The notes under the pieces: generated by a model
Seen by the model: only the letters and a program-made list of their open reading frames with translations
Databases searched by the model: none
Told to the model about the DNA's origin: nothing
Shown here: positions 26,106-29,029 of the stretch, piece after piece
Layout: each line of letters starts with the position of its first letter
How positions within the stretch are numbered: the first letter of the stretch is position 1
Source of the DNA: Planctomycetota bacterium
GTDB lineage: Bacteria; Planctomycetota; Planctomycetia; Planctomycetales; Planctomycetaceae
Reading direction: 5' to 3'
Assembly: GCA_003670925.1 (NCBI GenBank)
Contig: QWQG01000068.1
Span: 1-35,220 of the forward strand
Length of the DNA stretch: 35,220 nt
Position numbers and translations under genes: made by a program

Positions 26106-26578
26106 CAACTGAAGTGGCATCTACTCTGCATTGTTCCATAAGTCGGATCAGACAATTTTCCACGCAAGGCAGCATGCCCGGACGCTCCAACCCTGTTGGC
26201 CCCAGGGCACCCGTGAAAACGGCCTAAGTTCACTGTATGGATTTCGCATGATTCCGTGAAGTTTGTGGAAGATAGGCTTGGGGATTGTGGGTTGAAGTTG
26301 GTGTTGCTATTATTTCGAATTGAAGGTAGTGTGCTATCTGCCTGAGTCAAATCGGAACGATATTTTGATCCGCCTGACTCGGTGGGTGTAGCCATCAGCA
26401 AGCTCGAAGACAGTCGCGTACTTCCAGTCTCGTCAGCCCTCGAGTCCTGCGCAGCATACACCTTTGTGATCAGCCTCTGATGTTTTTGATCAGTCGGGCT
26501 TCTAAATTTGTGTTCAAACGGTTGCCGTTGTGGCAACGATCAGGTGTTTAGTTAGCTGTATAGCTCAAGGGTTTTGTG
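26106..26578. other. Intergenic region and probable leader of the RRM gene
   Basis: About 470 bases without a credible gene; a 162-codon minus-strand frame (26048-26536) overlaps dnaE and has no domain. Two small hairpins lie near the 3' end: ATCAG-CCT-CTGAT (26469-26481) followed by GTTTTT, a weak terminator-like form, and GTTGCC-GTTGT-GGCAAC (26521-26537), 41 bases before the RRM start. A long structured leader would fit a temperature- or self-regulated RNA-binding protein, but this is inference. Confidence 0.4.
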
Positions 26579-26986
26579 ATGAGTAAGAACATTTTTGTGG
26601 GTAGCCTCGCGTGGGGCACGACGTCTGAGGGCCTCGAGCAGGCCTTCGCGCAGTACGGCGTTGTGACTTCTGCCAAGGTTGTTAGCGACCGCGAAACAGG
26701 CCGATCCAAAGGATTCGGTTTTGTGGAGATGGAGACCGGTGGTGATGAAGCCGTTCGTGCTCTGAACGGTTCAGATCTCGATGGTCGCCAGATTGTCGTC
26801 AACGAAGCACGTCCTCGCGAAAGCGGTGGCGGCGGTGGCGGTGGCGGCGGCGGTGGTGGACGCGGCGGCTATGGTGGTGGCGGCGGCGGTCGTGGAGGCA
26901 GTGGTGGTGGCGGCGGCGGCGGCTACGGTGGTGGCGGCGGCGGTCGTGGAGGCAGTGGTGGTGGCGGTGGACGCGACCGTTACTAG
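26579..26986 (+). CDS. Glycine-rich RRM RNA-binding protein
   Basis: The 135-aa product has one RNA recognition motif with both RNP signatures (RNP2 IFVGSL, 5-10; RNP1 KGFGFVEM, 44-51) and the usual end LDGRQIVVNEARPRE. A tail of roughly 50 residues made almost only of glycine, with R, Y and S, follows and ends in RDRY. This is the architecture of bacterial and cyanobacterial Rbp proteins, some of which are cold-induced and act as RNA chaperones. AAGGG at 26567-26571 supports the ATG at 26579; a GTG directly before it is an alternative. The tail contains an in-frame 54-bp tandem duplication. A strong hairpin terminator follows. Confidence 0.93.
   Translation: MSKNIFVGSLAWGTTSEGLEQAFAQYGVVTSAKVVSDRETGRSKGFGFVEMETGGDEAVRALNGSDLDGRQIVVNEARPRESGGGGGGGGGGGGRGGYGGGGGGRGGSGGGGGGGYGGGGGGRGGSGGGGGRDRY
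26864..26971 (+). repeat. 54-bp in-frame tandem duplication in the Gly-rich tail
   Basis: Two adjacent 54-bp units (26864-26917 and 26918-26971) differ at only three third-codon positions. Each encodes the same 18 residues, in the order GGYGGG, GGGRGG, SGGGGG. The near identity indicates a recent slippage or unequal-exchange event, or strong homogenisation. Confidence 0.85.
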
Positions 26987-27163: not shown

Positions 27164-29029
27164 CTAAAACGCGCCGCCAATCATCTGCAGGATACTGGAT
27201 GCCTGTGCGTCACTGGACGGGAGCGTCCAGAGCCACATCGTGCGGACAAGTTCGATTCCGACGACTGCGCACATCACGGAAACCAATGCCGAAAAAGCGA
27301 TCATGATCTTCGTGCCAGTGCTCCAGTCCACGTCGGCTCGTCCAACACGCATCGTAACAGGGAAGCCTGTAACTTGACTTTGACCCGACGTGAAGTTGGC
27401 GTCTTCTTCGAATTCCTCGGAGTCATGCACATCCTGATCACCGTCTTCTTCGAATTCATCTTCGCTGTATTCAGACGAACTTTCTTCGTTCTCAAACTCT
27501 TCTTCGACGTCTTGATCCTTTGCCGCAGCGGCGGACAATGTCGGAACGGCCACGGTCCTTGAAGAATCTAGATCTTCGTCTTCTTCAAATGTTAGCACGC
27601 CAGTATTGGAGCCGACTTCATCATCATCATCGTCAAGCCCAGCGAGTTCAAATTCACTGTCATTGCCGCTGCCTAATTTCCGAATTTCAAATTGGGTAGT
27701 CATGGCCGTCGAATCGGACAGGGCGGCTTTGGCACCCGGGATCGCCTGCATCGACATTGTCCGGCTCACATCGTCGGCTTGCATTGAGATCCCACTGTCG
27801 TCATCCAGATCCAGCGAAATCCCGCTGTCTCCGGCGTCCAGTGTGATCCCGCTGTCATCACCCAAGCTAGTTCCGCTGGCGTGGCTTTCCAGCGAAATCC
27901 CGCTGTCGTAGCTTTCCAGACTAATGCCGCTGTCGTCTGCTTCTAGACTGATACCACTGTCCATTTCCAGCGAAATTCCGCTTTCATCAGCTCCTAACCC
28001 AAGTCCGCTGCCGCGTACTTCGAGTGAGATGCCACTGTCAGGCTTATCTCTTCTGACGCCAGACCCCTTATTGATCAGTTTCAAGTCGCTGTCATCTGGC
28101 GGAAATTGAAGCCGGTTTGGTGTTGCCTTTGGCGGAGCTGACGGCTTCGTGGACGGGGTCGGTGAAAACTTTGCGGTTGGTGCGGGTGAAGGTTCCGCAA
28201 GGCGGATATCACTGTCAGTGCGATCTAGGTCTGCACTCAGTTTCACATCGCTGTCGCTGTCTGCACTCGGCACCAAGAGATCTTCGCTGCCCATCAGTTT
28301 GACATCACTGTCAGAATCGATGCCATCAAAATGTCCGGTCGCAGCCAGATTATTATCGACGGCCGCATCATTGTCAGCAAGCTGCACGTCGCTGTCATCG
28401 TCTTCACCAGACAGACGTACGTCGCTGTCAGAATCAGACATCTTAAAGTCGGAATCAATAGACGGGCCGACCTTACTGCCGGGGGCTTTCACTAGCACGA
28501 CATCGCTGTCGGGATTGTCGAGCATCTCACCCGTAGCACCCAGATCGATGTCCGCGTGAGTCCCCGCACCAACCAGTTTAACATCACTGTCTGAATCCGA
28601 GATTTTTGCATCACTTCCCCAGCCACTCAGATCCAATTCATCTTCAGATTCTACTTCCTCGAGGTTTGGCCCACTGTCGCCAGCCAGTCGCACATCGCTG
28701 CCAGTAGTCTCCAGACTCTTCGCGTCTGTGTCGCCAAACAATGCTTCATCAAAAAACAGCCGCACGTCGCTGTCTGATGATGACAAATCAGCAGCATCCA
28801 GTTCTTCCAGAACGGACGATGACGAGCTCCCAGTGATGATTGGAAAGTCGGGCGAAGAATCCGCCTGCCGACTGCGCTGAAATTCATCGATATCCTGTTC
28901 GCGAAACTTCCAGCTGCCACGATCCGCGAATCCGCGAATTTCGCCCTGCTCACGGACCTTCATCAATTGCTCGGTCGTCATGTCCAGCAGGCCAGCTGCT
29001 TCTTCAAGGCTGAGATATTTCTTTGCCAT
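27164..29029 (-). CDS. HTH protein with DSDV(K/R)L and DSGISLE repeats and C-terminal membrane helix
   Basis: The 621-aa product has an unusual order. Residues 1-55 form an excisionase/MerR-type helix-turn-helix (KYLSLEEAAGLLDMTTEQL, then RGSWKFREQDIDEF). A long acidic region follows with about 12 SDSDV(K/R)L-type motifs (28075-28785) and then about 8 DSGISLE-type motifs (27775-28045), separated by a Pro/Ser/Thr-rich linker. A Glu/Asp-rich stretch (DVEEEFENEE) leads to one transmembrane helix (about 575-595) and a short tail of about 26 residues. This suggests a tail-anchored, membrane-bound DNA- or partner-binding protein; I know no function for it. The start is the ATG at 29029; the frame runs on to 29098 without need. 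The gene converges on the RRM gene across a strong terminator. Confidence 0.8.
   Translation of the reverse strand: MAKKYLSLEEAAGLLDMTTEQLMKVREQGEIRGFADRGSWKFREQDIDEFQRSRQADSSPDFPIITGSSSSSVLEELDAADLSSSDSDVRLFFDEALFGDTDAKSLETTGSDVRLAGDSGPNLEEVESEDELDLSGWGSDAKISDSDSDVKLVGAGTHADIDLGATGEMLDNPDSDVVLVKAPGSKVGPSIDSDFKMSDSDSDVRLSGEDDDSDVQLADNDAAVDNNLAATGHFDGIDSDSDVKLMGSEDLLVPSADSDSDVKLSADLDRTDSDIRLAEPSPAPTAKFSPTPSTKPSAPPKATPNRLQFPPDDSDLKLINKGSGVRRDKPDSGISLEVRGSGLGLGADESGISLEMDSGISLEADDSGISLESYDSGISLESHASGTSLGDDSGITLDAGDSGISLDLDDDSGISMQADDVSRTMSMQAIPGAKAALSDSTAMTTQFEIRKLGSGNDSEFELAGLDDDDDEVGSNTGVLTFEEDEDLDSSRTVAVPTLSAAAAKDQDVEEEFENEESSSEYSEDEFEEDGDQDVHDSEEFEEDANFTSGQSQVTGFPVTMRVGRADVDWSTGTKIMIAFSALVSVMCAVVGIELVRTMWLWTLPSSDAQASSILQMIGGAF

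What the first reader, a model, noticed from the sequence alone, without database searches (positions are those of the whole stretch)
27164..29029. Tail-anchored helix-turn-helix protein with two families of acidic DSD/DSG repeats
Seen directly: an N-terminal excisionase-type HTH, about 12 SDSDV(K/R)L-type motifs, about 8 DSGISLE-type motifs, an acidic stretch and one transmembrane helix close to the C-terminus. Inference: a cytoplasmic DNA- or protein-binding head on a long, disordered, negatively charged tether fixed to the inner membrane. The short repeats may be phosphorylation or partner-docking motifs, since each has a D-S-(D/G) core followed by a hydrophobic residue. It could link nucleoid or a protein complex to the membrane in a phylum with unusual cell organisation.
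Basis: partly seen in the sequence, partly recalled or inferred. Interest (0 to 1): 0.7.

Follow-up and report, generated by a model that had tools for sequence, protein, structure and literature searches.

The report
Membrane-tethered helix-turn-helix protein paired with OmpA
Most planctomycete genomes examined carry a protein with a small DNA-binding-like head on an acidic floppy arm anchored in the membrane, here studded with short repeated motifs, and in many lineages its gene sits beside one for a wall-binding outer-membrane lipoprotein, which points to an unstudied complex between cytoplasm and cell envelope.

Summary
The frame is real: window 27167-29029, minus strand, 621 aa, with an HTH_17-type head (res 1-56), 10 DSD-type and 7 DSG-type motifs (shuffle means 0.06 and 0.02), an acidic stretch and one transmembrane helix near the C-terminus. 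Proteins picked by their head also have the anchor: 38 of 38 closed ones, nearly all of the window's family, 20 of 20 elsewhere in the class, 56 of 58 outside it. The head profile hits 195 of 246 genomes of the phylum. New here: outside the class an OmpA-type lipoprotein gene follows on the same strand within 1.5 kb in 44 of 66 loci and precedes in 0 of 66; in the window's family it is adjacent in 11 of 61 genomes, but not in the window's own. The head's recognition helix lacks the Thr usual in DNA-binding relatives and is acidic, though a basic wing and one Arg remain. Best reading: an inner-membrane docking scaffold coupled to an envelope lipoprotein. Rivals: membrane-bound regulator, nucleoid tether. 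The paper searches made listed no description of the pair. Function is inferred.

The parts
27164..29029 (-). whole gene, ATG 29029 to TAG 27164; 621 aa
28862..29029 (-). N-terminal HTH_17 / MerR-like winged head, res 1-56
   Evidence: Pfam; AF2 model pLDDT 77 (best of five, the others 47-54); PDB fold matches
28076..28774 (-). zone of ten DSD[VILF]x[LIM] motifs, res 86-318
27782..28039 (-). zone of seven DSG[ILV]x[LM] motifs, res 331-416
27395..27661 (-). acidic stretch, about res 457-545
   Evidence: read in the sequence; linker net charge
27242..27310 (-). single transmembrane helix, about res 574-596
   Evidence: hydropathy; AF2 helix 569-601
27167..27241 (-). short C-terminal tail (res 597-621), predicted outside the cytoplasm; the junction motif [DE]Lxxx[MAVI][WY] is in 30 of 38 homologues

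Best explanation
The protein is a single-pass inner-membrane docking scaffold. Its MerR/excisionase-fold head has most likely been turned from DNA binding to protein binding. The 500-residue acidic, probably disordered arm displays 17 copies of a short docking motif (Asp-Ser-Asp/Gly-hydrophobic-x-Leu) that lets it gather many copies of a cytoplasmic partner. The short tail beyond the membrane works with an OmpA-type, peptidoglycan-binding lipoprotein that is encoded next door in many lineages, which I take to be the ancestral order. The whole would tie a cytoplasmic assembly to the cell envelope. Shown: architecture, motif conservation, wide presence, gene pairing in other genomes. Inferred: topology, partner binding, loss of DNA binding, contact with the lipoprotein, scaffold role.
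For: Head and anchor go together in proteins picked by their head: 38 of 38 closed homologues, 20 of 20 class loci, 56 of 58 other loci. Presence: 58 of 61 genomes of the family, 69 of 79 of the class, 195 of 246 of the phylum. OmpA-type gene within 1.5 kb downstream on the same strand in 44 of 66 loci outside the class (37 of 58 in the set not used to build the OmpA profile) against 0 of 66 upstream within 3 kb; in the 54 loci usable, slots -3 to -1 hold it 0 times of 153, slot +1 27 of 53, slot +2 13 of 50; 6 of 20 class loci; 11 of 61 family genomes by comparing coordinates by eye. OmpA domain Pfam 1.4e-13 and 3.4e-17 in two tested, lipobox-like Cys read in the sequences. Recognition helix: the residue before the core hydrophobic is Thr in 17 of 23 control HTH_17 domains, Glu in 25 of 37 and 43 of 57 family heads; mean domain charge +4.1 vs +0.2 and -2.5. 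CbpM is a precedent of a MerR-like fold that binds a protein and lacks the DNA-binding residues (PMC4063869, passages), and is among the Foldseek matches of the head (3ucs). Motif cores are better conserved than the rest of the linker.
Against: No interaction, localisation or phenotype is known. In the window's own genome the OmpA-type gene is on another contig, and 22 of 66 loci lack the neighbour. The wing stays basic in all groups (+2.6 to +3.4) and the Arg/Lys two after the core residue is kept (31 of 37 and 51 of 57, against 19 of 23 controls), so DNA binding is not excluded. The positive-inside rule supports N-in in 45 of 56 distant proteins but is neutral in the window's set (13 more, 10 equal, 14 fewer of 37). 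The large motif array is mainly a feature of the window's family (0-3 DSD-type and 0-4 DSG-type motifs in class relatives); the tail is long (46-146 residues) in 18 of 56 distant proteins, and 5 of 56 arms are not clearly acidic. 10 of 79 class genomes, all in one family (f88), gave no head hit.
Confidence: 0.46

Rival explanations
1. A membrane-bound transcription regulator with its periplasmic partner encoded next door, like ToxR/ToxS or VtrA/VtrC: the OmpA-type lipoprotein reports envelope state through the TM to the DNA-binding head.
For: HTH fold close to BldC, RacA, SoxR and NmlR; HTH_17 above cut-off; two-gene order regulator then periplasmic partner matches co-component systems (PMC9214523, passages); membrane-bound regulators are widespread (PMC10269533, abstract, passages, sections 6 and 12); wing and one helix Arg stay basic.
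Against: Recognition helix acidic, Thr lost, domain net charge near zero or negative; the tail outside the membrane is 16-27 residues in the window's set and 26-37 in class relatives, too short for a sensor fold, although 18 of 56 distant members have 46-146; a highly acidic arm of up to 500 residues is not a feature of those systems as I recall them.
Confidence: 0.31
2. A nucleoid-to-membrane tether in which the head binds DNA with low specificity, as the first reader proposed and as RacA does at the pole (recalled).
For: RacA-DNA (5i44) is among the best fold matches (E 0.03); the long arm gives reach; membrane anchor.
Against: Acidic recognition helix and an arm of net charge -95, which would repel DNA; RacA itself carries no TM (recalled).
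Confidence: 0.14
3. A mobile-element excisionase or a fortuitous reading frame.
For: Weak similarity to the excisionase model (18 bits).
Against: Below the excisionase cut-off; present in 58 of 61 genomes of the family, one head per genome in 18 of the 20 family genomes; no match in 50,697 phage records (head only) or 72,556 plasmid records (whole protein); motif cores conserved at 89% among close relatives.
Confidence: 0.02

Closest known systems
CbpM (MerR-fold regulator of the co-chaperone CbpA)
   Same: MerR-like head fold used for binding a protein; DNA-contact residues lost; encoded beside a partner gene (PMC4063869 passages; fold match 3ucs)
   Different: CbpM is a small protein that dimerises through a coiled coil (same passages); no acidic repeat arm or membrane anchor as I recall it
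Co-component systems ToxR/ToxS and VtrA/VtrC; transmembrane transcription regulators
   Same: N-terminal HTH, one TM, partner gene downstream acting outside the cytoplasm (PMC9214523 passages; PMC10269533)
   Different: Folded periplasmic sensor domain; lipocalin-like partner, not an OmpA lipoprotein; other HTH family and no long acidic motif arm (recalled)
BldC, RacA, Xis/RdfS winged HTH proteins
   Same: Head fold (VIA Z about 6-7; Foldseek E 0.014 at best, none at 0.001 or better)
   Different: Soluble DNA binders (recalled); 10-18% identity in the alignments; the contact helix differs in this family
Pal/YiaD/YfiB-type OmpA lipoproteins (for the partner)
   Same: OmpA domain after a coiled coil and lipobox-like start
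   Different: The two tested are below the cut-off of all 25 listed NCBIfam families each; pairing with an HTH-TM gene is in none of the papers listed by my searches, by title or shown abstract
RodZ (HTH-TM cytoskeletal protein)
   Same: Cytoplasmic HTH that binds a protein, single TM (recalled)
   Different: No RodZ-type domain among the Pfam hits; here the anchor is at the very C-terminus

Membership tests
Pfam HTH_17 | score over the gathering cut-off | tested here: met
   29 vs 27 bits for the window protein; a distant relative scored 22.9, below the cut-off
Excisionase (TIGR01764) | score over the curated cut-off | tested here: not met
   18 vs 28.8 bits; a distant relative 15.4
Excisionase | mobile or phage context | tested here: not met
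   no phage match for the head or plasmid match for the protein; present in 58 of 61 genomes of the family
MerR/BldC-type DNA-binding regulators | winged HTH head fold | tested here: met
   Pfam HTH_17 and AF2 model matching BldC, RacA, SoxR at middling scores; 4-sequence alignment, only the best of five models is confident
MerR/BldC-type DNA-binding regulators | usual residues of the DNA-contact helix | tested here: not met
   Thr before the core residue in 17 of 23 controls, Glu in 25 of 37 and 43 of 57 family heads; but Arg/Lys at +2 and a basic wing are kept. No binding assay
Transmembrane transcription regulator / ToxR-type co-component | HTH, one TM and a downstream partner gene acting outside the cytoplasm | tested here: inconclusive
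   partner gene downstream in 44 of 66 loci outside the class (TM in 56 of 58 of them examined) and 11 of 61 family genomes; unlinked in the window's own genome
Transmembrane transcription regulator / ToxR-type co-component | folded periplasmic sensor domain | tested here: not met
   21-25 residues after the TM here; 26-37 in class relatives; 18 of 56 distant members have 46-146
Transmembrane transcription regulator / ToxR-type co-component | binds promoter DNA | not testable with these tools
   needs ChIP-seq or a gel shift
RodZ | RodZ-type HTH and C-terminal domain in Pfam | tested here: not met
   only HTH_17 and two sub-threshold unrelated families listed at E up to 1
OmpA-family peptidoglycan-binding lipoprotein (partner) | OmpA domain and lipobox | tested here: met
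   Pfam OmpA 51 and 63 bits vs 27 in two tested; Cys after a hydrophobic leader read in the sequences; no lipobox predictor run
Pal (TIGR02802) (partner) | score over the cut-off | tested here: not met
   42 vs 125 bits for one of the two tested

The most novel reading that the evidence does not exclude
A phylum-wide planctomycete envelope complex of a kind not yet described: an inner-membrane scaffold with a repurposed excisionase-type head and, in the window's family, a multivalent acidic docking arm, joined across the periplasm to an OmpA lipoprotein (with, in some lineages outside the class, a third small membrane-anchored protein encoded upstream), organising cytoplasm against envelope in bacteria that lack the usual FtsZ division machinery (recalled).
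Probability: 0.3. Interest if true: 0.82.

Novelty: new variant of a known kind. Interest (0 to 1): 0.62.

Why it matters
Planctomycetes divide and organise their cells in unusual ways, and many of the responsible proteins are unknown (recalled). A widespread, usually single-copy, uncharacterised gene pair linking a cytoplasmic arm to a wall-binding lipoprotein is a directly testable candidate. It also shows an HTH label ('excisionase family' type) that probably misleads across a phylum, and an expanded array of short linear motifs in bacteria, where such arrays are seldom documented (recalled).

Tried and rejected
Operon partners inside the window: among 44 loci compared, no neighbour gene family is shared widely; the few shared with the window stay with its closest relatives L002-L004, apart from one in L092, one in L105 and one large family found at scattered places. 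The link appeared only through other families. Upstream small protein N0 as a universal third member: adjacent upstream in 19 of 66 loci outside the class and two genes away in one, no Pfam or NCBIfam hit for the one tested, 0 of 61 genomes of the window's family (no positive control in that call), so probably not part of the window's version. Phage or plasmid origin: no match. Essentiality in Planctopirus limnophila (PMC10632474, listing and one passage): the terms searched do not lead to the gene; supplements could not be opened. PMC3422733 (passages) read for Pal/OmpA in planctomycetes: no bearing on the pair. The regulator survey PMC10269533 collected TM-bearing DNA-binding proteins and mentions Planctomycetota; its tables were not open to me, so members of this family may be listed there. 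Distribution outside Planctomycetota was not tested. Chlamydial Euo (PMC4989314, passages), another excisionase-like winged HTH, described there as unique to Chlamydiae: no homology test run. PDB matches of the head are middling (best Z 7.2), so they show a common fold and no function. The full-length AF2 model is low-confidence and was not searched.

Paper searches aimed at the protein or pair; none of the papers listed is about it by title or shown abstract (capped listings; open-licence PubMed Central only).

Data handling: one search examined 57 of 60 loci (L031-L033 are duplicate stretches); 38 were kept for a recognisable head and a closed frame, 13 distant ones (L018-L030) were treated, and 6 (L038, L042, L046, L048, L053, L058) dropped as cut by contig ends or locus edges. 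mis-trimmed three starts (L005, L039, L059); their C-termini were read. still held L005 from an internal Met; that row was dropped (37 left, one of them, L017, of another family of the class). Of 33 HTH_17 domains printed, 10 were left out as controls: 4 are members of this family, 6 duplicates or near-duplicates. L161 and L163 (duplicates) were left out from then on; L137 (head without TM), L111 (cut) and L137. One search lost the HTH gene in 12 of its 66 loci; one search is the full count. The 66 loci come from 56 families, so a few are relatives; the 8 of the first set partly built the OmpA profile. I lowered the best explanation by 0.02 for the kept Arg and the long tails.

Full report
Observation. 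The gene is on the minus strand, 27167-29029 plus stop, 621 aa. HTH_17 is the only Pfam family above cut-off. Ten DSD-type and seven DSG-type motifs stand against shuffle means of 0.055 and 0.018. Copies that spell the same peptide differ at many synonymous sites (35 of 60 codon comparisons for DSGISL), so they are not a fresh DNA duplication. Aligned with three close relatives, motif cores defined on the window are 89% identical, the same residue types elsewhere in the linker 70%, the head 92%, TM plus tail 84%. The AF2 full-length model gives the HTH helices, one long helix at 569-601, a short helix at 610-620, and otherwise little at good confidence (mean pLDDT 38.7), as expected of a disordered arm; a shallow alignment contributes to that.

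Family. The protein is found in 58 of 61 genomes of the window's family. The 38 closed homologues kept for a recognisable head (the window, three named MAG loci, 33 of the family, one of another family of the class) all have a hydrophobic segment near the C-terminus: 35 parsed, three mis-trimmed there and read. Over these, 282 DSD-type and 212 DSG-type sites show Leu two after the V/I in 86% and 87%, and Ser before DSD in 82%, positions that the search pattern did not fix. Some genomes hold a diverged paralogue of the same plan (G274, G275, G285). In the class 69 of 79 genomes have the head; the 10 without are all of one family, f88. In 20 loci fetched of the 49 hit genomes outside the window's family, 20 have a TM with 26-37 residues after it and 0-3 DSD-type and 0-4 DSG-type motifs: the plan is class-wide, the large motif array belongs to the window's family. 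Across the phylum the head profile hits 195 of 246 genomes, 114 of 134 good ones. Of 13 first hits outside the class, 12 read as 207-336 aa (frame length) head-arm-TM-tail proteins and one is a multi-head protein cut by the locus (by eye). In a second set of 58 loci from 53 families, picked by their head hit, 56 have a TM; one is cut by a contig end, one (L137) lacks it. In those 56 the arm is acidic (net -5 or lower) in 51 and the tail is 17-45 residues in 38 and 46-146 in 18.

Gene neighbour. In loci of other families an OmpA-type gene follows on the same strand. Over 66 loci from 56 families it lies within 1.5 kb downstream in 44 (7 of 8 first hits, some of which built the profile; 37 of 58 in the second set) and upstream within 3 kb in none. 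By slot, in the 54 loci usable: 0 of 153 in the three upstream slots, 27 of 53 (26 on the same strand) and 13 of 50 in the first two downstream slots, 1 of 45 in the third. In the class it follows in 6 of 20. In the window's family this OmpA-type protein gives one match at E 1e-20 or better in each of 59 of 61 genomes and, comparing coordinates by eye, lies directly downstream in 11 (G246, G252, G253, G263, G266, G267, G281, G289, G291, G295, G299), divergent in one (G296) and some 7 kb off in one (G048). With one copy in about 6 Mb, chance adjacency would be rare (reasoning, no simulation). In the window's genome the two are on different contigs (G000:C254 and C188). The partner has an OmpA domain (51 and 63 bits vs 27 in two tested), a coiled coil and a lipobox-like start (by eye). 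A third small membrane-anchored protein lies adjacent upstream in 19 of the 66 loci but was not found in the window's family.

What the head does. Its model (pLDDT 77; four-sequence alignment; the other four models 47-54) matches BldC, RacA, MerR-type regulators and CbpM in the PDB at middling scores (Foldseek E 0.014 at best; VIA Z up to 7.2). Against 23 other HTH_17 domains from this genome and its relatives, the family lacks the Thr before the core residue of the recognition helix and mostly carries Glu/Asp there and before it; mean domain charge is +4.1 in controls, +0.2 in the window's type and -2.5 in distant relatives. The wing stays basic in all, and the Arg/Lys two after the core residue is kept. 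CbpM shows that this fold can be turned to protein binding with loss of DNA contacts (PMC4063869, passages). I therefore favour protein docking, without excluding DNA binding.

Mechanism. The favoured model is an inner-membrane scaffold: arm and head in the cytoplasm (positive-inside supports this in 45 of 56 distant members but is neutral in the window's set), motifs as multivalent docking sites, the tail outside, acting with the OmpA-type lipoprotein. The junction motif [DE]Lxxx[MAVI][WY] is in 30 of 38 homologues. Steps not shown: topology, any binding event, localisation, phenotype. The chief rival is a membrane-bound regulator with its partner next door, as in ToxR/ToxS-type co-component systems (PMC9214523, passages) within the transmembrane regulators surveyed in PMC10269533 (abstract, passages, sections 6 and 12); it fails two tested features (helix residues, folded periplasmic sensor) and shares the HTH-TM plan and, in many genomes, the gene pair.

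Novelty. Head, anchor and partner domains are each known; the combination, its wide presence in the phylum and the gene pair are not, by title or shown abstract, the subject of any paper listed by the searches (capped lists, open-licence papers; supplementary tables not seen). I rate it a new variant of a known kind (membrane-tethered HTH protein with a partner gene), with about 0.3 probability that it is a new kind of envelope scaffold.

Noticed in passing
L110, L112, L113, L121, L129, L136, L138, L143, L149, L164 and others, directly upstream of the HTH gene: A family of small (118-165 aa, one 241 aa) membrane-anchored proteins with a motif like VTG...LWxIDT..LxxY...AARxIxYDL; the one tested has no Pfam or NCBIfam hit.
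   Followed up: partly
L028 (G089:C67): A protein with at least five HTH_17-like heads in series (by eye), open at the locus edge, in a genome with 7 head matches whose best lies elsewhere.
   Followed up: no
L087, L088, L089, L103: Diverged paralogues with DSGLSLDTGDSGLSL-type arrays and a MWTG-type tail in some genomes of the family.
   Followed up: partly
L196 (G000:C188) and L197 (G293:C35): In the window's genus the ompA-type gene is followed on the same strand by an LmbE-like and a PP2C-like phosphatase gene (names recalled from sequence).
   Followed up: no
L003: A contig filed under Candidatus Kuenenia stuttgartiensis encodes a protein 71% identical (best segment) to the window's and shares three neighbouring gene families with the window: probably a mislabelled or contaminated MAG.
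   Followed up: no
window 26576-26986 (+): Small RNA-binding-like protein with a glycine-rich tail beside the gene; a relative lies beside the gene in L002 too. Name recalled from sequence.
   Followed up: no
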